The notes beneath the pieces are model-generated. The model saw nothing but the letters and a program-made list of their open reading frames with translations, was not told the DNA's origin and did no database searches. Positions 17,372-40,497 of a DNA stretch of 41,385 nt are shown piece after piece (position 1 is the first letter of the stretch; the number at the start of each line of letters is the position of its first letter). This DNA is from Crocinitomicaceae bacterium. GTDB lineage: Bacteria; Bacteroidota; Bacteroidia; Flavobacteriales_D; Crocinitomicaceae. The stretch lies in NCBI GenBank assembly GCA_020832365.1, contig JAFIEX010000007.1, positions 1-41,385 on the forward strand, written 5' to 3'. Position numbers and translations under genes: made by a program.

Positions 17372-17376
17372 GAAGT

Positions 17377-18156
17377 TTAATTGGTGATTAGAACAACCGT
17401 AGTAACAATTAATGAGGTCAAGGAAATAAACAAACCGCCTGTAGATCGCCAAAGCGCAGCTTGTGACCTGGCTGTTACATTGGGTTCGACATAAACCACA
17501 TCATTTTGTTCTAAATAGTAAACAGGCGAATTAAGAATATCGCGTCGCGTTAAATCCACACGATACTCTTGACGAACACCATCACGATCACGGATTACAA
17601 GCAGGTTATCTCTTTTAGCAGTAATCCTTAGATCTCCAGCTAGTCCAATAGCCTCCAAAAGGGTAATTCTTTCATTGGGTATTTGAAAAGTACCTGGCTT
17701 TTGACAATCGCCCAACACTGTTACTTTGAAGTTTAAAATTTGCAGATTAACAACTGGACTTCTCAGGTAATCTTCATATTTAGTTTTTAACAATGCGTTG
17801 GCCTCCACCCTGGTTAAGCCTGCTAGTTTTACTTTTCCAATAATTGGTAAATCTACCTCCCCATTTTCATCGATTAAATAGCCTGATTTTGATGGTGTAC
17901 CCACCGTGTAACCAAAGTTCATGGGTTCGCGCATACCTTGAGTGGGATAATTAAAAGGAATAGCTGACTCTGGGTCTTCGGCTGTTACCACTACCGCGAT
18001 AAAATCATCTTTCTTAAAAACTGGTGTGAAATTTTGATACGTTGATTCCAGCGACTCTCGATTGTCTTGATTGAACAAAACAATTTCCTTTCTTGTTCCG
18101 CAAGAAAATAGTATGAGCGAAGCCAATAAATATAAGTTAATGAGATTCGGGCGCAT
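17377..18156 (-). CDS. wza: Polysaccharide export lipoprotein (Wza-like, Poly_export/SLBB)
   Basis: A 259-residue exporter. A signal peptide with lipobox LFSC places the lipidated Cys at residue 19, so it is outer-membrane associated. The Poly_export domain spans about 48-140 (GYLIDENGEVDLPIIGKVKLAGLT), then an SLBB domain (VTVLGDCQKPGTFQIPNERITLLEAI). A C-terminal hydrophobic helix (LFISLTSLIVTTVVLI) ends the protein, which is common in Bacteroidota members and shorter than E. coli Wza (about 379 residues). It forms the outer part of the export channel with Wzc, whose start is 5 bases away. Confidence 0.93.
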   Translation of the reverse strand: MRPNLINLYLLASLILFSCGTRKEIVLFNQDNRESLESTYQNFTPVFKKDDFIAVVVTAEDPESAIPFNYPTQGMREPMNFGYTVGTPSKSGYLIDENGEVDLPIIGKVKLAGLTRVEANALLKTKYEDYLRSPVVNLQILNFKVTVLGDCQKPGTFQIPNERITLLEAIGLAGDLRITAKRDNLLVIRDRDGVRQEYRVDLTRRDILNSPVYYLEQNDVVYVEPNVTARSQAALWRSTGGLFISLTSLIVTTVVLITN

Positions 18157-18228: not shown

Positions 18229-19356
18229 TTAACTAGCCATTTTGTGTTTTCGCCAAACTTTTATGCGCTTTTGGTATTTCATTGCTCGCAAGATGCGGGG
18301 TTTATTGATGAAAAAGAAATAAGCTACAGCAGCAAATAAAACCACAGACAAAATGAGTAACATGTACCATTGACTTACCAGCATGGCCATACCCGACAAG
18401 AAGATAATTGCAACAAAATGAAAGGCACCAAGCCAAAGACTAGCCTTTCCATGAGATATTTGGTAGTGATCTATAATAACGTGATGGATATGGTTTCTGT
18501 CTGGTGAAAAGGGGCTTCTCCTATTCATTAAGCGAATAAAAAACACCCTAGCGGTGTCGAAAAAAGGCACAATTAAAATCGCGAAAACTACATAAGGAAT
18601 GTTCTCTTGCTCAAAAGGCAACTTAGCAAGCGCAGCGTCTTCCAACATGAGAAAGCGCAAGACCATGACGCTCATCATAAAGCCCAAAAGCATAGACCCA
18701 GTGTCACCCATAAAAATTTTATTCGTTTTAGAGAAATTAAATCGCAGAAAAGCCAGCAAGGTGCCTACCATCACTAAACATGTTAAGAACAAAAAATAGT
18801 TATCTACTTGATAAAAGATAATAGCGAAGACGGTGAAAATAATGATTGATACTGTTGCTGCTAAACCATCAATCCCATCAATTAAATTTACTGCATTGAT
18901 AATGGCGATAATTATGAAAAGTGCCAATGGAAAGGCCAACCACAAAGAGAGCTCTTCCACCCCCATAAAACCATGTAAGCCTTTGATTCCAAATTTAAAA
19001 TCAAACAACAAAAACACGCCTGCGGCAATTTGTCCAATTAGTTTCGTTAGTGGACTTAAAACTACCAAATCGTCTTTTATGCCCAAGATAAACAATATGA
19101 TAAGTCCTGGAATAATAGACATAGAACTCTCTAAAACATCAAAACGCTGAGAGAAATAAAAAGACAACATGATTGCAATAAAAAAAGCAATTCCCCCTAA
19201 ATTTGGAGTGGCAATGCTGTGTGAACTTCTTTCGTTCGGATCATCCATTAAGTGCTTATAATGAACAACCTGAACAATTTTAGGAATAATACTGTAGGAT
19301 ACTACAAATGAAAACAAGAGTAAAAAAGGGGCTAATAGCGTTAAATCATTTAACAT
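18229..19356 (-). CDS. Undecaprenyl-phosphate sugar-1-phosphate transferase (WecA/TagO/MraY family)
   Basis: A 375-residue multi-pass inner-membrane enzyme that starts the glycan by attaching a sugar-1-phosphate, probably GlcNAc-1-P, to undecaprenyl phosphate. Visible motifs are DDPNERSSH (about 38-46), GIKDDL, the catalytic NAVNLIDGIDGLA, FMGDTGSM, and the His-rich RNHIHHVI loop typical of WecA/WbpL-like members. The 3' partners are wza and wzc; the upstream polysaccharide block ends 168 bases earlier. It could serve this glycan or several glycans. Confidence 0.9.
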   Translation of the reverse strand: MLNDLTLLAPFLLLFSFVVSYSIIPKIVQVVHYKHLMDDPNERSSHSIATPNLGGIAFFIAIMLSFYFSQRFDVLESSMSIIPGLIILFILGIKDDLVVLSPLTKLIGQIAAGVFLLFDFKFGIKGLHGFMGVEELSLWLAFPLALFIIIAIINAVNLIDGIDGLAATVSIIIFTVFAIIFYQVDNYFLFLTCLVMVGTLLAFLRFNFSKTNKIFMGDTGSMLLGFMMSVMVLRFLMLEDAALAKLPFEQENIPYVVFAILIVPFFDTARVFFIRLMNRRSPFSPDRNHIHHVIIDHYQISHGKASLWLGAFHFVAIIFLSGMAMLVSQWYMLLILSVVLFAAVAYFFFINKPRILRAMKYQKRIKVWRKHKMAS

Positions 19357-19523: not shown

Positions 19524-20381
19524 CTATTTGGAAGTAATATCTATGACAGGGGCATCTGTCCAGTTGACTTTTTCATTTGCTTTGGCTAAATCCATGAACT
19601 CGAAATTATTCACCCACTTTCTCAACTTTACCTCCGTTTGTTTTAATCCGTAGTAAGATTTAAACTTTCGGACTGCGCTTAAGCCTGGAACCATGGGTTG
19701 TTGGGGATCAAAGTCACGGGGATGGAAGTAAGTCATGACATAAGGCGATTTTTCAGTGAATTTTTGGATGGCGCTATAGGGAAATAATCGAAAGTACCCT
19801 CCTCCGCTGAAAATGATGTCTTTACCAAAAAGACGATGCGTATTGATCGGAAATTCTTTCAATTGCATTCCTTGGCATGCTATGATAGCGGGTTTTGCTG
19901 TGCCAAATTGCTCAAAACCACCATGTGACCTAGATGCCGGAAATACAGAACTGTCTATTTCAATACCATTCTTCAGTAAGGCCTCAAAGGCCCATGGTGT
20001 ATTTGATGTAATTGAAAAACCAGGTGCTCTAAAGTATTTTATTTTATTCCCAGCTATGTCCCCCAATATACCAATAGACTTTTGGAGATCTTGCCCAAAG
20101 TCTGCCGGTGATTGCTCATAAACCAATTGGTGCAGGTGTGTATGCGATCCGATTTCATGCCCATTCTCAATAATTCGCTTCACTTGATCTGGGTGTTTTT
20201 CTGCAATCCAGCCTACTACAAAAAACGTTGCCTTTTGTTGATGGTCATCCAAGATTTTGAAAATCGTGTCCATGTTTTGTGCAAGGCGACTTTCAAATTT
20301 AGACCATTCTGCAATTCCTTTTGTATCTGGATTGTCTAAGATGTGAAACCAATCTTCTATATCGAAAGTAAGAATATTCAT
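19524..20381 (-). CDS. Polysaccharide deacetylase (NodB/CE4 with DUF3473-like tail)
   Basis: A 285-residue deacetylase with no signal peptide, resembling the PEP-CTERM-locus deacetylase subfamily. FDIEDWF gives catalytic Asp7; GHEIGSHTHLHQL provides metal ligands His80 and His84; YFRAPGFS carries Arg118; SGGGYFRLFPY and YFHPRDFDP are the C-terminal motifs. It removes acetyl groups from N-acetyl sugars, probably on lipid-linked intermediates at the cytoplasmic face. The ATG overlaps the stop of the sulfotransferase gene by 4 bases (ATGA), so translation is coupled. It is the last gene before the wecA unit. A free amine made here could be the target of N-sulfation (inference). Confidence 0.92.
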   Translation of the reverse strand: MNILTFDIEDWFHILDNPDTKGIAEWSKFESRLAQNMDTIFKILDDHQQKATFFVVGWIAEKHPDQVKRIIENGHEIGSHTHLHQLVYEQSPADFGQDLQKSIGILGDIAGNKIKYFRAPGFSITSNTPWAFEALLKNGIEIDSSVFPASRSHGGFEQFGTAKPAIIACQGMQLKEFPINTHRLFGKDIIFSGGGYFRLFPYSAIQKFTEKSPYVMTYFHPRDFDPQQPMVPGLSAVRKFKSYYGLKQTEVKLRKWVNNFEFMDLAKANEKVNWTDAPVIDITSK

Positions 20382-21268
20382 TTCCAGTGGTTTAGGCTTT
20401 TATTTAACAATTGCGCGGTTTGAGCAATATCTTTTTCAAAAAAAACTTGAAGCTGCTTTCTTGTGTTGATATTTATTTCATCTTTTTGAAAAAGTTTTGC
20501 GGCTATTTTTTCCGTAATTTTTCTTGGAACTAATTTCAATACCGCCTCACGAATCGTATAGAAAAATTTATTATTTCTGTCCGTTATTTTTGCAATCAAC
20601 TTATTTTTTGGTTTTCCTGAATGACTGAACTTTGTTGAAACATCAATATTATCATAGGGGTCTACTTCAAGAAATTCAAAAACGTCCTCTAATATTCTTT
20701 TTGGTTCACGCTCCAAATCCTCTAATAGAATAACTTTTACGTTAGAAAATGTATCTTGAAAAAGTTTTAGCCCCTCAGCATACAAACCACCTTTCTTATA
20801 TGCCCACATCCAGTCATAGTTTTTAGCAATTCGCTCCTCTTCAAGACTAATGGCTTCATCAAAAGTTATTGTTTCTCTAGAGTCGCGCAATAAATTACTG
20901 TAAGCAGAATAAGCTCTTTCAATAGGGTTTCTAAAACAAAGAATAATTTTTACATCACCAAGCTCTTGCTTAATAGCAGGAACCGTGTTTTTGTGATAAT
21001 AAAAATAATCAGAGCTTGCTTCACCAATTGCTTTGAAGTCATTTAAATCCGCAAAGAGATCATAATACTGCTTTTTATCTCGAATAATTTTGGCATCCAC
21101 TGTGTGGTCTCCTGGGCCATTGTGCGGAAATACAATCCCACTACTACTAAAATATTTAGGCTCTTTTACTTTTGGAAAACCAATTTGGGGGTGCTGTTTT
21201 AAGTAATGATACAAGGATGTTGTTCCGCATCTTGCAACACCTACGATGATGAAGTTGGGGGCTGTCAT
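20378..21268 (-). CDS. Sulfotransferase ST1 (PAPS-dependent)
   Basis: A 296-residue cytosolic sulfotransferase. The 5'-phosphosulfate loop GVARCGTTSL is at residues 10-19; KEPKYFS follows near 35-41. The 3'-phosphate site is CFRNPIERAYSAY with Arg113 and Ser121. The loop carries Arg13 where the other three sulfotransferases here and animal NDST enzymes have Lys. It transfers sulfate from PAPS to a sugar hydroxyl or amine. It overlaps the DUF1972 glycosyltransferase and the deacetylase by 4 bases each, so all three are translationally coupled. Confidence 0.92.
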   Translation of the reverse strand: MTAPNFIIVGVARCGTTSLYHYLKQHPQIGFPKVKEPKYFSSSGIVFPHNGPGDHTVDAKIIRDKKQYYDLFADLNDFKAIGEASSDYFYYHKNTVPAIKQELGDVKIILCFRNPIERAYSAYSNLLRDSRETITFDEAISLEEERIAKNYDWMWAYKKGGLYAEGLKLFQDTFSNVKVILLEDLEREPKRILEDVFEFLEVDPYDNIDVSTKFSHSGKPKNKLIAKITDRNNKFFYTIREAVLKLVPRKITEKIAAKLFQKDEININTRKQLQVFFEKDIAQTAQLLNKSLNHWK

Positions 21269-23477: not shown

Positions 23478-24438
23478 CCTTTCGTTGTAAGAAATCTTTA
23501 AAACCTAAAACAATACCGCTAGCAGCTGAAAACTTGCCTGTCACCGTCTTTTTTGCTAAACGAATGAGATTATATAAAAATAAAGTGGGTAGGTAATGAG
23601 GGTAATATTTTTTATAAAACACAAAGCTGTTTCTAATAAAATAATAGTGAGCTAATTTACCCCTGCCTGTTGATTGTCCAACCTTATCTAAAACATATGC
23701 ATCTTTTATTAATAGTAATGGTACATCAGCTAATTTGGCCTTTTTACAATAATCTGTTTCCTCCCAGTACAAGAAATATTCAGTAGAGAACAACCCAATT
23801 TTCTTTATAGTTTTTGTCGTTGTTATCAAAGCCCCTCCATAAACATAATCAATTTCATCTAATGTTTTTGTGGATTTGAGACAACTAAAAGGCTTATTTA
23901 ATTTCAAACCTCCTGATGATAATAATTGTGATGGATTATAATAATTACGGACTTCCATAGAAGCGATAAATTCATCCAATTTAATTTCCGAGATTATAGA
24001 TAAAATTTGTGGGTCAATGACAGTGTCAGGATTTAATAAAAAGAAAAGCTTATTTGAAACAGGTAATTCCGCATCGTTTCTAAATATATAATCAATAGCA
24101 GCATTGTTACCAGCTGCAAATCCTAAATTCTGCTTTGATTCTATAAAAAGAATTTTATTAAACTTTATTTCATCATCGCTTTTTTGATTTGAGTCAAAGT
24201 GCACTTTGAAGCTTCCCTCGTTGAAAACGATATGTTGCATCTTCACAAAAGATGAAATACTTTCGAAATAATCTAACAACCTTTCACTTGAACAGTTAGG
24301 AGAGCCGTTATCTACAATAGTAATTTGAAACTTTTTAAACGTACTTTTTAAAATTGAGTTAATACATTCAATTGAATCCTCCCATCCATTGTAGTTAATA
24401 ATTATAATATGGATCAATACATTATTCACAATCTTCAA
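23455..24438 (-). CDS. Glycosyltransferase, GT2 (rhamnosyltransferase WbbL-like)
   Basis: A GT-A enzyme of up to 327 residues. IIIINYNGWEDSIECINS starts the fold, NLGFAAGNN is at 104-112, and the metal-binding NPDT is at 136-139. FLYWEETDYCKKAK is the conserved ED-Y block of dTDP-rhamnosyl GT2 enzymes, supporting rhamnose as the donated sugar. No ATG is available: starts are TTG at 24438, GTG at 24429 or TTG at 24417, the last removing the 17-base overlap with the sulfotransferase gene upstream. The 3' end overlaps the following GT4 by 23 bases. Confidence 0.88.
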   Translation of the reverse strand: MKIVNNVLIHIIIINYNGWEDSIECINSILKSTFKKFQITIVDNGSPNCSSERLLDYFESISSFVKMQHIVFNEGSFKVHFDSNQKSDDEIKFNKILFIESKQNLGFAAGNNAAIDYIFRNDAELPVSNKLFFLLNPDTVIDPQILSIISEIKLDEFIASMEVRNYYNPSQLLSSGGLKLNKPFSCLKSTKTLDEIDYVYGGALITTTKTIKKIGLFSTEYFLYWEETDYCKKAKLADVPLLLIKDAYVLDKVGQSTGRGKLAHYYFIRNSFVFYKKYYPHYLPTLFLYNLIRLAKKTVTGKFSAASGIVLGFKDFLQRKDGYKSFN

Positions 24439-25318
24439 GCCATTTGGGGATGTTGAAATATTTTTTATCTTCCAGAAATTCTTTTAACTGTTTGTTTTTA
24501 AACCTATAAAGCTTATCTAATTCGTTTAATGAAGGCTCCTCTGTTTGAGCAAGTGTTTTAACATTCAAACGGTAATACAATTTCCTTAAATTCTTTTTAA
24601 TCGTATAATTTTTTCTCAAAAATGGTTCAAATTTTTTAGCTGCGAATTGGGCAACTTTTTGCAGTTTTGAATACTTGAAGTTAACAGATTTATTCTCTAT
24701 TTCAAATGACTTATTATTATAAACGGATTCATTCAAATTGAGCCAACTGCATAATTCTTGGATAACTAAATGTGGATTATCTTTCAAGTCATCAAAAAAG
24801 AGTACTTTAATCTGTGAATCACTAAAGTATTCATACCAAACTGGAAGATAATCAATATAACTGCCCTCTAATAATTCTTTTGAATAAGGGTTTTTTGAAT
24901 TCACTTCTTCTAAAGAGCTAAAAGAAAGATGTTCATTGTAAAAAGATGAAAAATTATAATCCTCTGGAAAAATCAACTTTTTCTTTCTGTGTTTGAAGCT
25001 AGAAAGTATCTTCTCCGAAGGATTTCTAAATATAAATATTATTTTGGCATTAGGGTTATACTCTTTTATCAAACCTGCTGTTTTATGTTTACCATAAATG
25101 TATTCGGGACTTGCTTCTAACCAAATATTTTTTGATTTATTCTGAGAAAAAAAGTCTTCGTAGTTTGTATGTTTTTTAAAATAATTATGATCGGAAAAAA
25201 AATGCGTTTCTTTTATATCAGAACAGCATATTTCAGGATGCCATGATAAATAGGTAAACAATGAAGTGGTTCCCGCTTTGTGAACACCCCCAATTATTAA
25301 ATTTTTTTTTAAGACCAT
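24422..25318 (-). CDS. Sulfotransferase ST2 (PAPS-dependent)
   Basis: A 298-residue cytosolic sulfotransferase. The 5'-phosphosulfate loop GGVHKAGTTSL is at residues 10-20 with Lys14. KETHFFSDHNYF follows near 36-47, where the animal NDST/heparan family has KEVHFF. The 3'-phosphate site is FIFRNPSEKILSSF with Arg98 and Ser106/107. The later part is lysine-rich and poorly conserved, so the acceptor sugar is not predictable. It lies 59 bases after the wzy gene. It differs clearly from ST1, ST3 and ST4, which suggests a different position on the repeat unit. Confidence 0.9.
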   Translation of the reverse strand: MVLKKNLIIGGVHKAGTTSLFTYLSWHPEICCSDIKETHFFSDHNYFKKHTNYEDFFSQNKSKNIWLEASPEYIYGKHKTAGLIKEYNPNAKIIFIFRNPSEKILSSFKHRKKKLIFPEDYNFSSFYNEHLSFSSLEEVNSKNPYSKELLEGSYIDYLPVWYEYFSDSQIKVLFFDDLKDNPHLVIQELCSWLNLNESVYNNKSFEIENKSVNFKYSKLQKVAQFAAKKFEPFLRKNYTIKKNLRKLYYRLNVKTLAQTEEPSLNELDKLYRFKNKQLKEFLEDKKYFNIPKWLEDCE

Positions 25319-25377
25319 AGCTTTTGATTATTAAAATCGTGTAAGATTAGCAAAATATCTATTTAATAAATTAGTAT

Positions 25378-26541
25378 TTAAACATGATGTACAAATTTCT
25401 TTTTTGAAGAAACAAGAATAAGAACATAAACAAAAACCAAAGAAACCATTGCTATTGTAAGAAAGTTGAAGATATAACCTCTGTTAATCAAAGTTATAAA
25501 TGAAAATAGTACAAATGTTCTAACGGCTATATGTAAAGCATCAGTGGAATTTAAGTTTTTTCGTTCAAGATAACCAGAAATCGAACCAATAAAAATAGCA
25601 AAAAGAACCGTCAAAAGGTAGCCACCAAGTGCGTATGACATGCCTGGTAATGTAACCGTTAATTCAGCACCTAAATCCACCAAATAACCCCCAGAACCAA
25701 ACTCATAAGTGAATAAATCACTTGGCAAATCAGAAACTTCTGTAACACCGATATTATGAGTATCCATATAGTTATTTAAGAGGATATTATAACCATATAC
25801 GTTACTAATAAATACACGTTCAATAAACTTCGAAGCTGCGACTTCGTAGGTAGAATTCGTGAAATATTGCTTAGTAAGAAAAACGGAAAAAGACAGTATG
25901 AAAAGCAAAGCGAACCCAATTTTAGCGTTATATATTTTTATTCTTTTAAATCTATTACTTATCATCATGAAGTATAGTAAGGTCCAGATTACAAAACCTC
26001 TATACCCAGTAAGAAGGATAATTAAAAGACTTAGAGCTGGAATTATCAGGTAATACTTGTTTTTACGTTCAAAGTATATACAAATAAAAATCCCAGCCAG
26101 TATTGGTATTCCATGAAGAATCACTCTCGAGAAAAGTCCACTGCCAAACTTCAGTAACGTGCGACTTTCGCGCAGATTATCCATAAACAACATAATACCA
26201 ACTTGCGAAAAAAAGAAAATAACGAGCATTAAAAAGAAAATCAAATAAAGCCAAATAACTTTTCCATTTCTAAGCCTTACTTTAATCTTATTATACGAGG
26301 AATTTCCATAAACAATGGAATGTTTTTTAAAATAAACATGGAATGCCAAATGCAGGATAATAAAAATTAAAAAGTTTAAATTTGTTGTTGTGAAGAAGTA
26401 TTCTTCTAAATATAAATTACCAATAAAATTCACAGATAAAACCAAGTTTGAAATAAATATGTAACTAAATCCTTTTTCCGAAAGCTTGAAAATCAGCAAA
26501 AATAGAATCAAAATTATGAAAAAGTCAAAACCTTCAATCAT
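25378..26541 (-). CDS. wzy: O-antigen/polysaccharide polymerase (Wzy-like)
   Basis: A 387-residue polytopic membrane protein with about ten to eleven hydrophobic segments and a large loop near residues 230-290 (TNSTYEVAASKF to YEFGSGGYLVDLGAE). There is no strong family motif, which is normal for Wzy. The placement with Wzx, WecA, Wza and Wzc, and the topology, support a polymerase joining lipid-linked repeat units at the periplasmic face. The assignment is by context and topology. The ATG overlaps the ST3 stop by 4 bases. Confidence 0.78.
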   Translation of the reverse strand: MIEGFDFFIILILFLLIFKLSEKGFSYIFISNLVLSVNFIGNLYLEEYFFTTTNLNFLIFIILHLAFHVYFKKHSIVYGNSSYNKIKVRLRNGKVIWLYLIFFLMLVIFFFSQVGIMLFMDNLRESRTLLKFGSGLFSRVILHGIPILAGIFICIYFERKNKYYLIIPALSLLIILLTGYRGFVIWTLLYFMMISNRFKRIKIYNAKIGFALLFILSFSVFLTKQYFTNSTYEVAASKFIERVFISNVYGYNILLNNYMDTHNIGVTEVSDLPSDLFTYEFGSGGYLVDLGAELTVTLPGMSYALGGYLLTVLFAIFIGSISGYLERKNLNSTDALHIAVRTFVLFSFITLINRGYIFNFLTIAMVSLVFVYVLILVSSKKKFVHHV

Positions 26542-27497
26542 GGTCTATTATCAATATTTTTCCACGAAGTAAAATCCCGTCTTAAGAGATTTTCAAGTTT
26601 ATTGATATCAGCTTTAAATAACGGGATTAAAAACTCCCTTTCCTCAATAGTTAATTGAGGTATTTTTTTGTCTGTTAGCGCGATGTTTTTCATCTTCTTT
26701 ATTAAATATGATGGAAAAATACTTTTGGAAATACTTTTAAAAAAAACCGACTGAAGAAAATAGGTTAAGAGTTTATTTCTAGGTACCTTAGATGCGTTTT
26801 TTTTCTTTTTTCCTTCAGAAATCGACAATGTACTCAGGTTTAAGAACTTCTGAATTTTATTTAGTACTAAGTTGTTGTTGTCTTTGAATTCAGCGTAATC
26901 AAGAATTAGAATATTTTCATTTGGAAAAACTTCAAGATATCTTCTTATTTGTTCATAGTACATGCCTAATTCGATATATAAATGATCATTTTCCCAATAC
27001 TTTGTTCTACTTTTTAAATCCATTTCAACAGCATTAATGAAATTAGAAGATTTACTTCTACCAACCCTTAAGTCCATTAAAAAATGTGAAAAAGCTCTTT
27101 CTATCGGATCACGTAATATAATAATTATTTTCGATTCAGGATTAAAATTAAATATATTCCTTGCTGCATTTTTTGAATAAAGATAGCTTACACTTGCTTC
27201 TCCGTAAAACTTGTAACTTGAATCATAATCTTGAAATAATTTAAGATAACTTTCTTCATTTCTTAAATAAAGTTTATGCCCAGGTTTTACTTTTCCATCA
27301 GAACCAATTTTTAATTTTTGGCGAATAACTTTTTTCCTTTGAGTTTTGCAAAAATTTTCAATCCGTAAGTCGTCAGAAAAAAAATTCGGCTCTTTTATAG
27401 CGCTCATGAAAACCTCAGGTTGTTCAGAAAGTAAAGCATGTAAAGCGGTAGTACCTGCTTTCGCAGCTCCTACGATAAATAAATTTGGTTTCATCAT
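26538..27497 (-). CDS. Sulfotransferase ST3 (PAPS-dependent)
   Basis: A 319-residue sulfotransferase. The loop GAAKAGTTAL is at residues 10-19 with Lys13; KEPNFFSDD is near 35-43; the 3'-phosphate site IILRDPIERAFSHF has Arg129 and Ser137. An insertion with KTQRKKVIRQ to GHKLYL (about 51-80) is not seen in the other three. The C-terminus is basic. It overlaps wzy by 4 bases and follows ST4 after 4 bases, so expression with both is expected. Acceptor unknown. Confidence 0.92.
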   Translation of the reverse strand: MMKPNLFIVGAAKAGTTALHALLSEQPEVFMSAIKEPNFFSDDLRIENFCKTQRKKVIRQKLKIGSDGKVKPGHKLYLRNEESYLKLFQDYDSSYKFYGEASVSYLYSKNAARNIFNFNPESKIIIILRDPIERAFSHFLMDLRVGRSKSSNFINAVEMDLKSRTKYWENDHLYIELGMYYEQIRRYLEVFPNENILILDYAEFKDNNNLVLNKIQKFLNLSTLSISEGKKKKNASKVPRNKLLTYFLQSVFFKSISKSIFPSYLIKKMKNIALTDKKIPQLTIEEREFLIPLFKADINKLENLLRRDFTSWKNIDNRP

Positions 27498-27501
27498 ACT
27501 T

Positions 27502-28383
27502 TTATTTGTACCAACTAGATAAATCTTTTCCTATGATTTTCTCAAGTTCAATTATATCATGCAGGTATAGCTCAATTAGTTTTTTTCTTGTTTGATTATG
27601 AATCCTTTCTGTTGACTCTTTTGTAAAAATTAGTTTTTCAAGATTTTTTTTTAACTTATTTTTTGCATTTTTGGGGATAAGTTTTAAGGGTTTTTTAATA
27701 AAATTTTCACCATATAACACAAATTGTAATAAAGGGTATTTAGCTTCTTTAGCTTTGTTTGATTTTAAGTTAACATCTAAATCTATATTCTCAATATTCA
27801 AAAATTGTAATAACTCTTGAATGACTTCTTTTCTATTTAATATGAAATCATCTTCAAATCTAATGAAAAAAATATTTTCAATTGGAAAATACTTTAGGAA
27901 TCTTTTAACTTGTTCAGCATAGAAACCGCGTGATATATAGCTAAAGTCTGTTTTACTCTGATAATTATGAACTACTCTTACTTCCTCTTGAGCAATCGCA
28001 TCTTCAAAAGAAAGCTCTTCTTTTAACCTTCTTTTTGACATTAAATAATGCGAGAATGCTCTATCAACAGGATTCCTGAAAATGAATATAAGTTTTAAAC
28101 TTTTACCGTGCGCATCAAATAATCTTTTCGCCACATCTTCAAAATACATATACTCAGGATTGCATACTCCACAAACTTTTTCATTTTTATATTCTTTAAA
28201 AAATTCATTGTAATACCAATCCATGCCCTTCTCGAAACGCTCGTCCATATCAAAAAAATGAGCCTCTTTTTTTAATGGAAGAAAGACGTCTGGATGTTGT
28301 CTAAGTATGTCATGTAAAGTAGTAGTACCAGCTTTTTGGGCGCCTACGCAGTAAAAATTTATTTTAGTCCTTAGGTCATTCAT
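27502..28383 (-). CDS. Sulfotransferase ST4 (PAPS-dependent)
   Basis: A 293-residue sulfotransferase. The loop GAQKAGTTTL is at residues 14-23 with Lys17. KKEAHFFDMDERFEKGMDWY closely resembles the heparan-sulfate N-deacetylase/N-sulfotransferase and 3-O-sulfotransferase pattern (KE.HFFD...KG..WY). The 3'-phosphate site IFRNPVDRAFSHYL has Arg103 and Ser111. Of the four it looks closest to the animal glycosaminoglycan type by eye. It sits 50 bases after the flippase gene and 4 bases before ST3. Confidence 0.93.
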   Translation of the reverse strand: MNDLRTKINFYCVGAQKAGTTTLHDILRQHPDVFLPLKKEAHFFDMDERFEKGMDWYYNEFFKEYKNEKVCGVCNPEYMYFEDVAKRLFDAHGKSLKLIFIFRNPVDRAFSHYLMSKRRLKEELSFEDAIAQEEVRVVHNYQSKTDFSYISRGFYAEQVKRFLKYFPIENIFFIRFEDDFILNRKEVIQELLQFLNIENIDLDVNLKSNKAKEAKYPLLQFVLYGENFIKKPLKLIPKNAKNKLKKNLEKLIFTKESTERIHNQTRKKLIELYLHDIIELEKIIGKDLSSWYK

Positions 28384-28433: not shown

Positions 28434-29765
28434 TTAGGAATAAAAGTCAAACAAAAAATAAGTTTTTAAATTGAGTTTAACTCTTGCAATAACAGTGAGA
28501 GTTAAATTTAATAATAAGTATTGTAATGAAAAAATTATTGCTGCTGCCTCCATGGTTAATTTAAAATAATATGAAATAACAAAAAACAAAAATACTCCCA
28601 TTAAAAATGAAATGATATTTATTTTTCTTAAAATGTTCTGATTACCACTCATGTTAAAAAGGATACTTACAGAACCTGTCAACGCATTAATTAGTTGTCC
28701 AATTGAGAGAAACAAAAGCACCCAGTAACCAGTTTGAAATTCATTACCAAAAAATGCAAGTATTGCTTTTCCACCGCCAACAAGAATAACAGTTGAACTC
28801 AAGGCCACCCAAAACATCATCTTTGCAGATTGTGTAATTACTTTTTGTAGCTCATTCATTTTACCTGCCCAATACAGTTCTGCAAATTTAGGCGCTGCAA
28901 TCGTATTTACCACAACCAATATTAAAGATACTAAACTTGCTAGGCGAAAAGCTACACTATAGATACCTACTTCTGCTTGAGAGGTGTAGTAGTCTAAAAA
29001 GAAAATTGGCATAGAACTCATTAAACCAGAAGATATACCCGTCACCATCATCGGATACGACGTCTTCATCAATTCTTTTCTTTCAAAGCTTACACTTTTC
29101 TTTGGTACTTTTCTTAGCGCCTTCCAGATCGCCCAACGAGAGACAATGGAGTTAATCATCAAACCAATAATTAAGAGGTAGATGATATCTATATTTGTGA
29201 GGGAATCGTAAAAAAACAAAACAATTCCTAGGATCATCACCAAGGGGCGCAATACACTTCGCACGAGTTCGGAGATTTGGAGCTTTTTAAGTCCTCTAAT
29301 AAATTCTACTGAGATTTGGTTGATGGTAAAAAAAGGCAAAACAATGCCAACCAGCTTTAAACCATCTGCATATTCTTGTTCTTTGCCAGTCCATTGCACG
29401 ATGTAATCTGCACCAAAATAAAGCAAAGCACCAACAGCGATGGTTAAAGGGGCGACAGTCTGCACAAAATACTTGTACAACAGGTGCATTTTGGGGCGTT
29501 GTTCTTCGTTATTGAATTGCCCAACATAACGGAGCACGGAAATATTCATTCCAAGACCTAATACCATGCCTAGCACGGTTAAAATTTGCAACATCACCTG
29601 AAAAAAACCAACACCTGCAGCGCCAGCTTGTTTGGAGATGAGGTAAATCAACACATAACTCAAACCCATCCCGCCCATTTTTAAGACAAAGGTTATAGCA
29701 CTTCCTTTGAGTAGGTCTTTAAGGTGGATGTCACCGTTGAGTTTGTTTTTTATTTTTTGGAGCAT
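28434..29765 (-). CDS. wzx: Polysaccharide flippase (Wzx-like)
   Basis: A 443-residue membrane protein with about 12 hydrophobic segments and the MATE/MOP-type start LLKGSAITFVLKMGGMGLSY. Internal features such as AAGVGFFQVMLQI and AVNTIAAPKFAELYW-like text (VVNTIAAPKFAELYWAGKM) are typical of polysaccharide biosynthesis proteins (Polysacc_synt). It would flip undecaprenyl-diphosphate-linked, possibly already sulfated, repeat units to the periplasm for Wzy. It lies 20 bases after rfbB. Confidence 0.9.
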   Translation of the reverse strand: MLQKIKNKLNGDIHLKDLLKGSAITFVLKMGGMGLSYVLIYLISKQAGAAGVGFFQVMLQILTVLGMVLGLGMNISVLRYVGQFNNEEQRPKMHLLYKYFVQTVAPLTIAVGALLYFGADYIVQWTGKEQEYADGLKLVGIVLPFFTINQISVEFIRGLKKLQISELVRSVLRPLVMILGIVLFFYDSLTNIDIIYLLIIGLMINSIVSRWAIWKALRKVPKKSVSFERKELMKTSYPMMVTGISSGLMSSMPIFFLDYYTSQAEVGIYSVAFRLASLVSLILVVVNTIAAPKFAELYWAGKMNELQKVITQSAKMMFWVALSSTVILVGGGKAILAFFGNEFQTGYWVLLFLSIGQLINALTGSVSILFNMSGNQNILRKINIISFLMGVFLFFVISYYFKLTMEAAAIIFSLQYLLLNLTLTVIARVKLNLKTYFLFDFYS

Positions 29766-31760: not shown

Positions 31761-32312
31761 TTAAGCTGCTTTCGTGATTTTTTTGAGCTGCGACTTAGGC
31801 ACCTCAATTATAAATTTGGTGTTTAGCGCCGCTACCGCTAAACACACTTTATGTTTTCCTTTATGCATAATCAAATTACCGGCGATGCCGTAAAAAGACC
31901 CTGCAACTACTTCCACCCAATCACCAAGCTCAAAAAACTCCTCTTCGTGCAAGCTTTGGCAACCTTCAGACCAATTATCTGCAACAAGTTTCATGTGTTC
32001 CATTTCTTTGTCTGAAACAACTCCTGGTACATTTTTAATTTTTAAACAAGCTACAATAAGGGGGTGCTTCAGTACATCTTTAATGGCTGAGGCTTGCAAC
32101 TTAATAAAAATATAGCCCGGCAAGAGTGGTTCCATCACTTTCTTTTTTCTATCACTCCACTGTTTGATGGTCTTTACAATAGGCACAAAGACCTTATACC
32201 CTTGCAGAGTAAGCTCAACAAGTGCTTTTTTTTCAGCACGTGATTTTGTATAAAACACATACCACTTTTCCATAGAAGAATTGGGAAGAGATTGGTGTTT
32301 ATTATCAGGCAT
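31761..32312 (-). CDS. NusG/UpxY-like transcription antiterminator
   Basis: A NusG N-terminal (NGN) protein of 183 residues as called. The NGN fold begins at MEKWYVFYTKSRAEKKALVEL and continues through YKVFVPIVKTIKQWSDRKKKVMEPLLPGYIFIKL; the KOW-like C-terminus is GDWVEVVAGSFYGIAGNLI. In Bacteroides, UpxY relatives stop early termination in capsule operons. The start is uncertain: ATG at 32312, or ATG at 32273, which is the family start and fits the nearby -7-like box better. A longer in-frame reading would run through rfbC and is rejected. It lies 112 bases after rfbC and 93 before rfbD. Confidence 0.88.
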   Translation of the reverse strand: MPDNKHQSLPNSSMEKWYVFYTKSRAEKKALVELTLQGYKVFVPIVKTIKQWSDRKKKVMEPLLPGYIFIKLQASAIKDVLKHPLIVACLKIKNVPGVVSDKEMEHMKLVADNWSEGCQSLHEEEFFELGDWVEVVAGSFYGIAGNLIMHKGKHKVCLAVAALNTKFIIEVPKSQLKKITKAA

Positions 32313-32323
32313 GCTTTTTTTTG

Positions 32324-32331
32324 CAAATATA
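32324..32331 (-). promoter_or_regulatory. Candidate -7 box (TATATTTG) before the NusG-like gene
   Basis: Fits TAnnTTTG on the minus strand. A TTTG sits 15 bases further upstream (32347-32350), closer than the usual 19-21. A start about 6 bases downstream would leave almost no leader for the ATG at 32312 but a leader of about 45 bases for the ATG at 32273. Confidence 0.4.
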
Positions 32332-32424
32332 ACAATATCGTTTTTCCAAATTGTTTCAGCACTAACTATTTTAATCTTTTCACACTTAAACAGCCGGCCT
32401 ACTGTGCTAACATAAAAAACAGGA

Positions 32425-33000
32425 TTAATTTTTATACAATTCTTCTGAATTTTCAAAAACAGCTGCATTTTTAAAAGTAGGTAAATTCTTATCTTTTTCC
32501 GAGAACAACAGCTTTTTTGCTGGAATTTTCCAATCAATTTGAAGGTCTTGATCCAAGGCAAAGAAACCACTGTCGTGTGATGGTGCATAGTAGTTGTCGC
32601 ACTTATAGCTAAAAACCGCTTCTTCAGATAGTACTACGAAGCCATGCGCAAATCCTCTTGGAACAAATAATTGGTGCTTGTTTTCTTCTGTAAGCTCTGC
32701 CACGACCACTTGTCCAAAATAGGGCGAATCCTTGCGCATATCTACCGCAACATCTAAAACTGCACCAGATACAACACGAACAAGTTTGGACTGCGTATAA
32801 GGCATTTTCTGAAAATGCATGCCTCTAATTACCCCCCTTTGGGATTTTGATTCATTATCTTGGCAAAACTCAATTTTTCTTCCTATAAATTCATTGAACT
32901 TATCCATTCTAAAGGACTCAAAAAAATACCCCCTGTGATCACCAAAAACGCTGGGTTTACACAAGACCACATCAGGGATACTACATCTTTCAAATTCCAT
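32425..33000 (-). CDS. rfbC: dTDP-4-dehydrorhamnose 3,5-epimerase
   Basis: Epimerises dTDP-4-keto-6-deoxyglucose at C3 and C5 on the way to dTDP-rhamnose. The 191-residue cupin has HRGYFFESF near 22-30, QDNESKSQRGVIRGMHFQ with the catalytic His, SPYFGQ and VPRGFAHGFVVLSEEA, all RmlC hallmarks. The ATG is 4 bases after rfbA. It is the last gene before the NusG-like regulator. Confidence 0.96.
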   Translation of the reverse strand: MEFERCSIPDVVLCKPSVFGDHRGYFFESFRMDKFNEFIGRKIEFCQDNESKSQRGVIRGMHFQKMPYTQSKLVRVVSGAVLDVAVDMRKDSPYFGQVVVAELTEENKHQLFVPRGFAHGFVVLSEEAVFSYKCDNYYAPSHDSGFFALDQDLQIDWKIPAKKLLFSEKDKNLPTFKNAAVFENSEELYKN

Positions 33001-35177: not shown

Positions 35178-35263
35178 TAGTGATTAGTGGTTAGTGATTA
35201 GTGGTTAGTTGCCATAAACTAATCACTAGTTACAATCCACTATTCACCAGATACTAATCACTA
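35178..35263. repeat. Left flanking repeat of the four-helix-bundle cassette
   Basis: A 7-bp-period array of TAGTGAT/TAGTGGT, then gttagttgccataaactaa (35204-35222), then the same units in reverse complement, then caccagatactaatc (35245-35259) and acta. The block is an imperfect palindrome centred on GCCATA. It holds the stop codon of the four-helix-bundle gene. Confidence 0.85.
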
Positions 35264-35630: not shown

Positions 35631-35728
35631 TAGTGATTAGTGAATAGTTGTTAATGTTTAGTGATTAGTGAATAGTTGTTAGTTGCCATAAACTAACCAC
35701 TAATCACCAGATACTAATCTAATCACTA
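35631..35728. repeat. Right flanking repeat of the four-helix-bundle cassette
   Basis: Same design as the left block: TAGTGAT-type units (with a duplicated agtgattagtgaatagttgtta section), gttagttgccataaactaa (35678-35696), reverse-complement units, then caccagatactaatc (35705-35719). It ends in the cta that provides the cysD stop codon TAG. Confidence 0.85.
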
Positions 35729-36631
35729 AAAATAACCTTGTTTTTTTCTATCTTCCATGGCTGTTTCCGATCTTTTATCGTCCGAACGGTTTCCTCGTTC
35801 TGTTTGACGCATAGCTGAAACTTCCAATGCTATCTTTTCGAGCGTATCGGCATCTGATTCAATTCCTCCTGTGATGGTAATATCTCCTAAAGTTCTAAAT
35901 CTAATTTTTTTACGAACGATTTCTTCACCCTCTTCTTTAATAAGATATTCTGAGTCTGGTATCCATGAGTTGTTTCTCCAAACCACGTCTCTTTCATGCG
36001 CAAAGTAAAGCGAAGGAATTGCAATATCTTCTCTTAATATGTAATTCCAAACATCCATCTCTGTCCAGTTAGAGATAGGAAAAGCTCTAAAGTGCTCTCC
36101 TTCAAAGTGCTTACCATTAAATAAATTCCACAACTCCGGTCTTTGATTTTTAGGGTCCCACTGTCCAAAATCATCTCTATGCGAAAAGAATCTTTCTTTC
36201 GCCCTTGCCTTTTCTTCGTCTCTTCTGCCGCCTCCTATGGCACAATCAATCTTGTTAGATGCTATGGCGTCAAGCAAAGTAGTTATTTGTAAGGCATTTC
36301 TTGTGGCAAATTTACCTTTTTCCTCCTGAACCCTTCCTTGATCAATAGACTCTTGCACAGATCCCACTATTAGACGAGCACCTAATGATTCAATCAAGTC
36401 ATCCCTAAATTGAATGGTTTCTGGAAAGTTGTGACCTGTATCTACATGCATTAAAGCGAACGGGAACTTTGCGGGATAAAATGCTTTTCTTGCTAAATGC
36501 GTAACAACGATAGAGTCTTTTCCTCCCGAGAAAAGGATGACTGGGTTTTTAAATTGTGCTGCTACTTCTCTTAGGATAAAGATAGCTTCTGACTCTAATT
36601 CGTCCAAATAATTCAAATAATATTGATCCAT
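35726..36631 (-). CDS. cysD: Sulfate adenylyltransferase small subunit
   Basis: The ATP-PPi lyase subunit that forms APS from sulfate and ATP. It has 301 residues, with the PP-loop FSGGKDS at 34-40, HVDTGHNFPETI, GGRRDEEKARAKER and the intact C-terminus KKQGYF. The stop codon TAG is supplied by the adjacent repeat block, so the insertion left the protein complete. The ATG is 2 bases after cysC. Together with cysC and cysN it supplies PAPS. Confidence 0.97.
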   Translation of the reverse strand: MDQYYLNYLDELESEAIFILREVAAQFKNPVILFSGGKDSIVVTHLARKAFYPAKFPFALMHVDTGHNFPETIQFRDDLIESLGARLIVGSVQESIDQGRVQEEKGKFATRNALQITTLLDAIASNKIDCAIGGGRRDEEKARAKERFFSHRDDFGQWDPKNQRPELWNLFNGKHFEGEHFRAFPISNWTEMDVWNYILREDIAIPSLYFAHERDVVWRNNSWIPDSEYLIKEEGEEIVRKKIRFRTLGDITITGGIESDADTLEKIALEVSAMRQTERGNRSDDKRSETAMEDRKKQGYF

Positions 36632-36633
36632 GG

Positions 36634-37227
36634 TTATAATTTAATTTTTTTATTTACTAGTTCTATTACTTTTTCAACTGATTCCTTGAGGCTTTCTATA
36701 GACGTATCCAAGGTGATATCAGGGTTTTCAGGCGATTCAAAAGGAGCATTAACCCCTGTAAAGTCTTTTATTTCACCTCTTCTCGCTTTTGCATAAAGAC
36801 CTTTCACGTCCCTTTCTTCACAAACTGCTATTGGCGTATCCACGAAGACTTCCATAAAGTATTCTCTACCTATAATTTCTTTAAGCGCTTCTCTGTCTGC
36901 ATTAAGCGGGGAAACAAAAGCGGCGATACAAACCAATCCAGCATCCACCATTAACTTTGCGATTTCACCTACTCTTCTAAGGTTTTCTTTTCTGTCTTCA
37001 GGAGAGAAAGAAAGTCCTTTATTAATCCCTAGTCTAATATTGTCGCCATCTAAAGTATAGGTGTGCACTTTGTTTTCAAATAAGACTTTTTCCAACTCAT
37101 TGGCCACAGTTGACTTCCCGGACCCTGACAAACCCGTAAACCAAACAACAAGAGGTTTGTGTCCGTTTAGGCGCTGTCTGGTCGCTAAATTAACTTTGAA
37201 ATCTTGTAAATATATGTTTTCAGACAT
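36634..37227 (-). CDS. cysC: Adenylylsulfate (APS) kinase
   Basis: Phosphorylates APS to PAPS, the sulfate donor. It has 197 residues: P-loop GLSGSGKST at 32-40, DGDNIR, FSPEDRKENLRRVGE, the FVSPLNADRE region with the phospho-acceptor Ser, and KGLYAKARRGEIKDFTGV, all standard for APS kinase. As a stand-alone kinase inside a sulfotransferase-bearing cluster it points to sulfation rather than cysteine synthesis. No cysH, cysI or cysJ is in the window. Confidence 0.97.
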   Translation of the reverse strand: MSENIYLQDFKVNLATRQRLNGHKPLVVWFTGLSGSGKSTVANELEKVLFENKVHTYTLDGDNIRLGINKGLSFSPEDRKENLRRVGEIAKLMVDAGLVCIAAFVSPLNADREALKEIIGREYFMEVFVDTPIAVCEERDVKGLYAKARRGEIKDFTGVNAPFESPENPDITLDTSIESLKESVEKVIELVNKKIKL

Positions 37228-38243: not shown

Positions 38244-39050
38244 TTAAAGTGCAAAGTTAGTGTGATTTTTTCCAATAACCAAGAACCAGTTGTTTAATAA
38301 TTTTTCTCGGTTGTAAATCATGTCTTTTTTCGTTTCCCAATCAATTACTTTACAGCCTGCGAACTTACAGATGGCTTGACCCGCGGCTGTGTCCCATTCC
38401 ATCGTTGGAGCAAATCTTGGATAAAAGTCCGCTTGACCCTCTGCCACCATACAAAGTTTTAATGAACTTCCTTTGGATAAAGTCGCTACATCTCCATAGG
38501 TTTTTGATAGTCCATCGATAAATGTTTGCGTTTCTTCAGACATGTGAGATTTGCTCGCTACCGCCACAACTTGGTCTCCGTTATTTTGCAGGGGTAATGC
38601 AACCTTAGTGTTTGTTTTTTCAGAAAAATTATGGTTGTCAACATCTTGTATTTTAAATGCACCATGCTCATCAGCAAAGTATAATTCTTTCTTGGCTGGA
38701 ACATAAATGACACCAAGTATTGGCTCTTGATTTTCAATCAGCGCAATGTTTACAGTAAATTCTCCATTTCTCTTAATAAATTCTTTTGTTCCGTCAATGG
38801 GGTCAACTATCCATAACTTTTGCCAGTTCTTTCTTTCTTCATAGCTTAAATGCTTACCTTCTTCAGACAATATGGGTATTGCTGTTTTAGATAAATAACT
38901 TAAGATTATTTCATTAGACAGCTTGTCTGCTTTCGTCAATGGAGAATTATCTCCTTTTGTTTCAATTCCAAAATCTTCAGAATTGTACACTTTCATAATT
39001 TCTAAGCCGGCATGCATTGCGGCTTCGATGGCTAAATCTAGGTTGTTCAT
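38244..39050 (-). CDS. cysQ: 3'(2'),5'-bisphosphate nucleotidase (PAP phosphatase)
   Basis: Hydrolyses PAP, the inhibitory by-product of sulfotransferases, to AMP. It has 268 residues: SEEG at 62-65, VDPIDGTKEF at 82-91 with metal-binding Asp83 and Asp86, and EWDTAAGQA near 218-227, all of the inositol-monophosphatase fold CysQ branch. Its place upstream of cysC/D/N and four sulfotransferases fits PAP clearance. The gap to the dehydrogenase gene is 18 bases. Confidence 0.95.
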   Translation of the reverse strand: MNNLDLAIEAAMHAGLEIMKVYNSEDFGIETKGDNSPLTKADKLSNEIILSYLSKTAIPILSEEGKHLSYEERKNWQKLWIVDPIDGTKEFIKRNGEFTVNIALIENQEPILGVIYVPAKKELYFADEHGAFKIQDVDNHNFSEKTNTKVALPLQNNGDQVVAVASKSHMSEETQTFIDGLSKTYGDVATLSKGSSLKLCMVAEGQADFYPRFAPTMEWDTAAGQAICKFAGCKVIDWETKKDMIYNREKLLNNWFLVIGKNHTNFAL

Positions 39051-39068: not shown

Positions 39069-40469
39069 TTATTCTCCTACTCCTATACCTTGGTACTGAA
39101 AACCAATTGCCTGCATTTGTTCCTTGTTTAATATGTTTCTGCCGTCAAAAACGAAGGCTGGTTTAAGCATTTGGTCAAAAATTCTTTGCCAATCTAGCGC
39201 TTTGAATTCATCCCACTCAGTTAGAATTGCTATGGCGTGCGCATTTTTGGTTGCTTCATACGGACAATTTTCACTTTTCACAGCTTTCTGATTTTCTTCC
39301 GCCGTTCTGGTGTTTAAATAATTTAAATCCGATTGTATTTGGTGGTGTTTCACCTTAGGGTCATAAACCTTAATCATGGCATTTTCTTCTAGCAAATAAT
39401 CTGCTACATAAATCGCTGCGGACTCTCTCGTGTCGTTAGTGTCTTTTTTAAATGCCCAGCCAAAAAAAGCAATGTTTTTGCCCGAAACGGTGTTATACAT
39501 CGTTTTAATCATCTTGTGCGCGAATCGTCTCTTTTGATGGTCATTCATGATGACCACTTGGTGCCAATAGTGTGCTACTTCCTCGAGACCCAAAGATTGT
39601 GCAATATAAACTAAGTTGAGTATATCCTTTTGAAAACAAGAGCCACCAAAACCAACGGAGGATTTTAAAAATTTAGGCCCTATTCTACTGTCCGTTCCAA
39701 TTGCTTTAGCCACTTCATCCACATTAGCACCTGTTTTTTCACAGAGTTCAGAAATCGCATTAATAGAGGAGATGCGTTGCGCTAAAAATGCATTTGCGGT
39801 GAGTTTAGACAATTCAGACGACCAAACATTTGTGGTTAATATGCGCTCTCTCGGTATCCAATGGGCGTAAATATCAACCAATGCATTTAGTGCTGCTTGA
39901 CCTTCTGGAGTGCTATCTCCACCAATCAAAACTCGGTCAGGATTTCTTAAATCATCTATGGCGGTTCCTTCGGCTAAAAACTCAGGATTTGAAAGGATTT
40001 GAAAATTCACACCATTACCCGTGTTTTCTAAAATACTTTTAATTGCCTCTGCTGTTCGAACAGGAAGCGTAGACTTCTCCACAACTATTTTGTCGTCTTT
40101 TGCTACTTTAGCAATTTGTCTCGCACACAATTCGATGTATTTCAAGTCTGCGGCCATTCCCTTGCCTTTTCCGTATTCCTTGGTGGGGGTATTCACAGAA
40201 ATAAAAATCATGTCTGCCTCATGGATTGCCATATCTACAGCTGTACTAAAGAACAAGTTTTTCCCTCGATTGCTTGCAACTATTTCATGTAATCCAGGTT
40301 CATAAATAGGAATGTTTGTAACATCTTCGTCATTCCATGCTGCTATTCTTTCTTTGTTTAAGTCAACAACGTGAATCTTAATTTCTGGGCACTTCTCTGC
40401 GATTACTGCCATTGTTGGTCCTCCAACATATCCAGCCCCGATACAGCAAATATTTTTAATCTTTTTCAT
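39069..40469 (-). CDS. UDP-glucose 6-dehydrogenase (animal-like type)
   Basis: Oxidises UDP-glucose to UDP-glucuronate with two NAD+. It has 466 residues: [11 protein letters not shown] near 10-20, [44 protein letters not shown], and [17 protein letters not shown] with catalytic Cys near 277, then [14 protein letters not shown]. The blocks match animal UGDH unusually well by eye. I chose the ATG at 40469; the upstream TTG extension MKILNTRK is poorly supported. UDP-GlcA would supply a uronic acid for the polysaccharide. Confidence 0.95.
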
Positions 40470-40497
40470 TTTTCTCGTATTCAATATTTTCAAATAG

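What the first reader, a model, noticed from the sequence alone, without database searches (positions are those of the whole stretch)
19524..21268. Deacetylase and sulfotransferase coupled by a 4-bp overlap: possible split analogue of animal NDST
Seen: the CE4-type deacetylase ATG overlaps the ST1 stop (ATGA). Known: animal heparan N-deacetylase/N-sulfotransferase joins a deacetylase domain to a sulfotransferase in one protein, producing N-sulfated glucosamine. Inference: here the pair may deacetylate a GlcNAc residue and sulfate the free amine, giving a heparinoid-like N-sulfated glycan made before export.
Basis: inference. Interest (0 to 1): 0.68.

Follow-up and report, generated by a model that had tools for sequence, protein, structure and literature searches.

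The report
Bacterial deacetylase–sulfotransferase pair, possible N-sulfation
In a gene cluster for a sulfated slime polysaccharide, a deacetylase and a sulfotransferase form a conserved pair that may strip acetyl groups from an amino sugar and put sulfate on the exposed nitrogen, as animals do when making heparan sulfate; this chemistry has no assigned bacterial enzyme that I could find, and it is inferred here, not shown.

Summary
ST1 (20378-21268, minus) and a CE4/DUF3473 deacetylase (19524-20381, minus) overlap by ATGA inside a Wzx/Wzy sulfated-polysaccharide locus with four sulfotransferases and PAPS genes. The overlap alone means little: three other gene pairs in the operon share it. The pair is nevertheless real. 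ST1 orthologues with the same 4-bp overlap lie directly 5' of the deacetylase in three other genera (two Bacteroidota, one Mariprofundus). In 74 loci holding relatives of this deacetylase, the gene in ST1's slot is usually an amine-modifying enzyme (40 formyltransferases, 8 ATP-grasp, 7 GNAT, 4 FemAB); four loci have ST1. Loci with directly adjacent ST1 lack any other such enzyme nearby. Sister ST1s keep one between themselves and the deacetylase. Adjacent ST1s form one clade; their deacetylases do not (AU p = 1.7e-20). It is not a split NDST by descent: the deacetylase belongs to another family, ST1 is nearer to heparan 3-O-sulfotransferase by sequence, and NDST1 residues Lys614 and His716 are Arg and Asn. 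O-sulfation beside a free amine remains a serious rival. No bacterial N-sulfotransferase turned up in the papers searched.

The parts
19524..20381 (-). CE4 polysaccharide deacetylase with C-terminal DUF3473; no signal peptide; conserved motif residues D7, E9, H80/H84, R118/P120, D143, H220
   Evidence: Pfam; NCBIfam TIGR03006 246 bits against cut-off 276; alignments; AlphaFold pLDDT 89.8 and CE4-fold PDB matches
20378..21268 (-). ST1, PAPS-dependent sulfotransferase with the 3-OST/NDST-type fold; 5'-PSB loop VARCGTT, KEP motif with E36
   Evidence: Pfam; nearest PDB 3RNL (2e-56), then 3-OST-3 (2.6e-7), NDST1 (5.8e-4); AlphaFold pLDDT 90.2; Foldseek
20378..20381 (-). ATGA overlap of ST1 stop and deacetylase start
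   Evidence: same overlap in L036, L060, L083, L089
21265..22362 (-). GT4 glycosyltransferase (DUF1972; Cps2T beta-1,4-rhamnosyltransferase-like, below cut-off), conserved neighbour of ST1; also overlaps ST1 by 4 bp
18229..19356 (-). WecA/MraY-type initiating sugar-phosphate transferase, next gene 3' of the deacetylase
   Evidence: PF00953 6e-37; TIGR02380 141 bits, below cut-off
24422..25318 (-). ST2 sulfotransferase
26538..27497 (-). ST3 sulfotransferase
27502..28383 (-). ST4 sulfotransferase
25378..26541 (-). Wzy-type repeat-unit polymerase
   Evidence: TIGR04370 41 bits, cut-off 40
28434..29765 (-). Wzx-type flippase
   Evidence: PF01943
17377..18156 (-). Wza-type export protein
   Evidence: PF02563
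14987..17452 (-). Wzc-type co-polymerase/tyrosine autokinase
   Evidence: PF02706, TIGR01007
33897..35153 (-). CysN, ATP sulfurylase large subunit (PAPS supply)
   Evidence: TIGR02034 above cut-off
35726..36631 (-). CysD, ATP sulfurylase small subunit
   Evidence: TIGR02039 above cut-off
36634..37227 (-). CysC, APS kinase (makes PAPS)
   Evidence: TIGR00455 above cut-off
38244..39050 (-). CysQ, removes the sulfotransferase by-product PAP
   Evidence: TIGR01331 above cut-off
39069..40493 (-). UDP-glucose-type 6-dehydrogenase (uronic acid donor)
   Evidence: TIGR03026 above cut-off

Best explanation
ST1 and the deacetylase are a cytosolic two-enzyme module of a Wzx/Wzy-dependent sulfated exopolysaccharide pathway. 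A WecA-like enzyme starts the repeat unit with an N-acetylated sugar on undecaprenyl phosphate. The CE4/DUF3473 enzyme removes the N-acetyl group from a HexNAc of the lipid-linked unit, and ST1 uses PAPS made by the neighbouring CysDNC to sulfate the freed amine. Wzx, Wzy, Wza and Wzc then flip, polymerise and export the N-sulfated repeat. In most related loci the same slot holds another amine-modifying enzyme, so sulfate would be one of several alternative caps. Shown here: the genes, their conserved adjacency, the slot substitution and the separate histories of the two genes. Inferred: which residue is deacetylated, and that ST1 acts on nitrogen rather than oxygen.
For: Same gene order with the same 4-bp overlap in L036/L060, L083 and L089. 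Gene 5' of the deacetylase in 74 loci: 40 formyltransferase, 8 ATP-grasp, 7 GNAT, 4 FemAB, 3 hexapeptide, 3 HAD (at least two after an ATP-grasp), 4 sulfotransferase, 5 others. 69 of 76 non-ST loci have an acylating or amide-forming enzyme within 2.5 kb; 0 of 4 adjacent-ST loci do (Fisher 2e-4; 1.5e-3 if L036/L060 count once). The window locus also has none. Adjacent ST1s are one clade (100/95), sister to three ST1s whose loci keep a FemAB or ATP-grasp between ST1 and the deacetylase. The deacetylases of adjacent loci are not one clade (AU p 1.7e-20) and neither are the GTs, so the missing cap follows ST1 itself. Predicted ST1 fold groups with 3-OST/NDST, glucosaminyl sulfotransferases. Precedents: HfsK proposed to acylate amines exposed by HfsH (PMC5362036); Pontiella exopolysaccharides reported 75-80% N-sulfated with unknown enzymes (PMC7356697).
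Against: ST1 is nearer to a 3-O-sulfotransferase than to NDST by sequence (2.6e-7 against 5.8e-4). NDST1 Lys614 and His716 correspond to Arg13 and Asn125, and most bacterial relatives keep His there while this clade does not. The sister ST1 clade coexists with another amine-modifying enzyme beside the deacetylase (L039, L145, L164), so the ancestral ST1 probably sulfated something else. ST1 is also often next to the same glycosyltransferase. Only about four independent adjacent loci are known. The commonest slot occupant resembles ArnA, and ArnA formylates before the CE4-like ArnD deformylates, so part of the slot pattern may not mean capping. No biochemistry.
Confidence: 0.45

Rival explanations
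1. ST1 is an O-sulfotransferase acting on the same or a neighbouring residue, and the deacetylase leaves a free amine, giving a repeat with both positive and sulfate charges.
For: ST1 is nearest to a heparan 3-O-sulfotransferase among human enzymes of known specificity; NDST1 Lys614 and His716 are replaced; the sister ST1 clade occurs beside other amine-modifying enzymes. Free amines after deacetylation are thought to matter in holdfast-type polymers (PMC8449245).
Against: About 9% of related deacetylase loci (7 of 76) lack a capping-type enzyme nearby, whereas all adjacent-ST1 loci lack one.
Confidence: 0.32
2. ST1 belongs functionally to the glycosyltransferase and O-sulfates the sugar it adds; the deacetylase is adjacent only because both work in the same pathway.
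For: The glycosyltransferase lies directly 5' of ST1 in the window, L089, L039, L145 and L164, and one gene away in L036/L060.
Against: The GT tree does not match the ST1 split: L089 GT groups with L145/L164, L039 GT with the window. L083 has the ST1-deacetylase pair with different GTs. It does not explain the missing capping enzyme.
Confidence: 0.17
3. The deacetylase works like ArnD, removing a temporary acyl group from a lipid-linked amino sugar so that later enzymes can act; the slot partners are upstream donors, not caps.
For: The predicted fold matches ArnD (8t0j) among the top hits, and the common formyltransferase partner scores best against ArnA.
Against: ATP-grasp and FemAB partners do not fit a temporary-acyl role, and no formyltransferase is in the window locus.
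Confidence: 0.06

Closest known systems
[quoted passage not shown]
   Same: Proposed two-step reaction; ST1 shares the 3-OST/NDST sulfotransferase fold (TM about 0.64) and the Glu of the KE/EE motif (E36).
   Different: Two proteins; deacetylase is CE4/DUF3473, not the Agd3/CE18-like NDST domain (PMC10864358, PMC13353177); no NDST N-terminal domain; Lys614 and His716 replaced by Arg13 and Asn125.
Caulobacter holdfast HfsH (CE4 deacetylase) and HfsK (GNAT)
   Same: Deacetylase in an exopolysaccharide pathway together with an enzyme proposed to modify the exposed amine (PMC5362036).
   Different: HfsK is a GNAT and is encoded outside the hfs locus; here the partner is a sulfotransferase whose gene overlaps the deacetylase gene.
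XrtA/PEP-CTERM exopolysaccharide deacetylase (TIGR03006)
   Same: Same family by sequence (246 bits, E 3e-73), including DUF3473.
   Different: Below the equivalog cut-off of 276; no exosortase found in the window.
Alicyclobacillus sulfotransferase 3RNL
   Same: Closest solved structure to ST1 (2e-56, TM 0.80 by query length).
   Different: Substrate not stated in the record seen; it lies outside the ST1 clade.
Pontiella N-sulfated exopolymers
   Same: Bacterial exopolysaccharide with nitrous-acid-labile sulfate on hexosamine (PMC7356697).
   Different: Enzymes not identified there; whether Pontiella has an ST1-deacetylase pair could not be checked here.

Membership tests
NDST | Deacetylase and sulfotransferase in one polypeptide | tested here: not met
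   Two ORFs with a 4-bp overlap
NDST | NDST-type (Agd3/CE18-like) deacetylase domain and N-terminal domain | tested here: not met
   Only Polysacc_deac_1 and DUF3473 match; no NDST entry among the 50 Foldseek matches shown
NDST | 3-OST/NDST-type sulfotransferase fold | tested here: met
   Foldseek: 3RNL, then 3-OST and NDST ahead of cytosolic SULTs, TPST, Stf0
NDST | NST catalytic residues Lys614, His716 and the EE-motif Glu | tested here: not met
   Arg13 and Asn125 at the Lys/His positions, E36 kept (sequence alignment only)
NDST | Transfers sulfate to a glucosamine nitrogen | not testable with these tools
   Needs an enzyme assay
Carbohydrate esterase family 4 | CE4 domain and catalytic motifs | tested here: met
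   PF01522 2e-23; conserved D7, H80-T-x-x-H84, R118-x-P120, D143, H220; motif 1 is the variant FDIED
XrtA system polysaccharide deacetylase TIGR03006 | Score above the equivalog cut-off | tested here: not met
   246.3 against 276.2 bits
PAPS-dependent sulfotransferase (PF13469/PF00685) | Score above gathering; 5'-PSB loop | tested here: met
   50.1 and 42.4 bits against 27 and 22; VARCGTT loop
CE4 plus amine-capping enzyme module | Capping-type enzyme directly 5' of the deacetylase | tested here: inconclusive
   ST1 occupies the slot, but that it modifies nitrogen is unproven

The most novel reading that the evidence does not exclude
ST1's clade is a natural bacterial N-sulfotransferase that replaced formyl, acyl or aminoacyl capping enzymes beside several unrelated CE4 deacetylase lineages, so bacteria arrived independently at the NDST reaction with a different deacetylase and as two coupled proteins.
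Probability: 0.4. Interest if true: 0.85.

Novelty: new variant of a known kind. Interest (0 to 1): 0.62.

Why it matters
N-sulfated hexosamine has been reported chemically in bacterial exopolymers (Pontiella), yet no enzyme has been assigned and 2020 authors state that prokaryotic glycosaminoglycan sulfotransferases are unknown. This gives a specific, testable two-gene candidate that recurs across two phyla. If right, it is a convergent NDST and a prokaryotic source of N-deacetylation/N-sulfation, the step named as the bottleneck in microbial heparin synthesis (PMC13353177). Even if ST1 proves to be an O-sulfotransferase, the slot analysis exposes a general module: a DUF3473 deacetylase coupled to interchangeable amine-modifying enzymes.

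Tried and rejected
Overlap length as evidence: rejected, because four of the 23 neighbouring gene pairs in the operon share the same 4-bp overlap. NDST homology of the deacetylase: rejected (PMC10864358). Arg against Lys in the PSB loop as a marker of adjacency: rejected, since L145 has Arg but is not adjacent. Searching ST1 against plasmids gave only 26-40% identical sulfotransferases; phages and viral contigs gave none. Foldseek does not separate N- from O-sulfotransferases (3-OST and NDST score alike). Misbinning of the Mariprofundus contig L089 as a Bacteroidota fragment: unlikely, G+C 48.5% against 31-35%. Peptidoglycan or secreted poly-GlcNAc as substrate: disfavoured, since the protein starts at the catalytic motif with no signal peptide and sits in an export locus.

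Full report
OBSERVATION. The two ORFs and the ATGA overlap are as described. The deacetylase carries Polysacc_deac_1 and DUF3473; ST1 carries Sulfotransfer_3/Sulfotransfer_1, all above gathering scores. The overlap is ordinary in this operon: ST1/GT, GT/GT and Wzy/ST3 share it.

SETTING. From 14987 to 40493 the minus strand holds a Wzx/Wzy exopolysaccharide locus: WecA-type initiator, Wza, Wzc, Wzx, Wzy, three glycosyltransferases, four sulfotransferases, RmlABCD, a UDP-glucose-type dehydrogenase, and CysN, CysD, CysC and CysQ for making PAPS and clearing PAP. The related genome G014 has a very similar combination. Neither ST1 nor the deacetylase leaves room for a signal peptide, so both should act in the cytosol, where PAPS and lipid-linked repeat units are (inference from sequence and general pathway knowledge).

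IS THE PAIR CONSERVED? A scan of genome contigs gave 80 relatives of the deacetylase, 52-70% identical. An ST1 orthologue lies directly 5' with the same ATGA overlap in L036 and L060 (one genus; L060 lies in the same contig as G014), L083 (Saprospiraceae) and L089 (Mariprofundus, another phylum; G+C 48.5%, so not a misbinned Bacteroidota contig). In L039, L145 and L164 an ST1 relative (47-49% identical) sits one or two genes 5' of the deacetylase. Eight more distant sulfotransferases have no such deacetylase nearby. Ascertainment caveat: five of the eight ST1-clade loci came from the deacetylase search; G660 (L145) and G1215 (L164) came from sulfotransferase searches alone, and both also have the deacetylase.

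WHAT ELSE SITS IN ST1'S SLOT? I took the gene directly 5' of the deacetylase in 74 loci. Clustering and Pfam gave 40 formyltransferases, 8 ATP-grasp proteins, 7 GNAT, 4 FemAB-type, 3 hexapeptide acyltransferases, 3 HAD (two of them shown to follow an ATP-grasp gene), 4 sulfotransferases and 5 others. Most are enzymes of kinds that put something on an amine. Within 2.5 kb, 69 of 76 non-ST loci have such an enzyme and 0 of 4 ST-adjacent loci do (Fisher p 2e-4, or 1.5e-3 counting L036/L060 once); the window has none in the whole locus. The categories were defined from these same loci, so the test is somewhat circular, and the loci are not fully independent. In the script output the label GNAT9 marks the ATP-grasp cluster and ATPgrasp the GNAT cluster; settles which is which.

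WHICH GENE CARRIES THE PATTERN? ST1s directly adjacent to the deacetylase form one clade (100/95); the three whose loci keep a FemAB or ATP-grasp gene between ST1 and the deacetylase are its sister group (94/91). The deacetylases of the adjacent loci are scattered among formyl- and ATP-grasp-type relatives; forcing them together is rejected (AU p 1.7e-20), although one of them (L089) is a long branch. The window deacetylase's closest relative, L035 (70%), has a formyltransferase in the slot. The glycosyltransferase tree also disagrees with the ST1 split. So absence of another cap follows the ST1 lineage, not the deacetylase or the GT. The simplest reading is that this ST1 lineage took over the capping step more than once.

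N OR O? Sequence cannot decide. ST1 matches heparan 3-O-sulfotransferase 3 (2.6e-7) better than NDST1 (5.8e-4), and both far less than 3RNL (2e-56), whose substrate I do not know. The AlphaFold model (pLDDT 90.2) matches 3-OST and NDST about equally. NDST1 Lys614 and His716, implicated in N-sulfation (PMC3733922), correspond to Arg13 and Asn125; the KE-motif Glu36 is kept. Asn125 is specific to the adjacent clade, where most relatives have His; its meaning is unknown.

DEACETYLASE. The model (pLDDT 89.8) is CE4-like, with ArnD among the best structural matches. The common formyltransferase partner is ArnA-like. In the Arn pathway formylation precedes deformylation (general knowledge), so for formyl-type loci a temporary-acyl role is possible; that reading fits FemAB and ATP-grasp partners poorly. 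NDST1's deacetylase is homologous to fungal Agd3 (PMC10864358) and clusters with CE18 (PMC13353177), so there is no common origin of this pair with NDST as a unit.

LITERATURE. Caulobacter HfsK was proposed to acylate amines exposed by HfsH (PMC5362036). Pontiella exopolysaccharides were reported to be 75-80% N-sulfated by nitrous acid difference, with enzymes unidentified (PMC7356697). Searches found no bacterial N-sulfotransferase; the library holds open-licence papers only.

VERDICT. Coupled, conserved and probably a deacetylate-then-modify module: well supported. N-sulfation: the leading but unproven reading (0.45). Split NDST by descent: rejected.

Noticed in passing
L035-L114, gene directly 5' of the DUF3473 deacetylase: Formyltransferase-deacetylase pairs dominate (40 of 74 loci), with ATP-grasp, GNAT and FemAB substituting in others: a general slot of interchangeable amine-modifying partners for which I found no description.
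   Followed up: partly
window 24422-28383: Three further sulfotransferases (ST2-ST4), about 25-30% identical to ST1, flank the Wzy and Wzx genes; the repeat unit may carry several sulfates.
   Followed up: no
window 35254-35619: A small four-helix-bundle-like ORF lies between cysN and cysD in the same orientation (judged by eye, not searched).
   Followed up: no
window 31761-32588: NusG-like protein (PF02357) inside the exopolysaccharide operon, its ORF overlapping rmlC; possibly an operon-specific antiterminator.
   Followed up: no
window 14987-17452: The Wzc-like kinase ends in a run of Gly-Tyr repeats, a likely autophosphorylated tail.
   Followed up: no
L036:5975-7114 and L089:547-1671: A GH5-like (Cellulase) gene sits beside the GT and ST1 in relatives but is absent from the window locus.
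   Followed up: partly
L039:1851-3589, L106:6253-7982: An ATP-grasp gene followed by a HAD phosphatase gene precedes the deacetylase, suggesting a two-enzyme capping variant.
   Followed up: no
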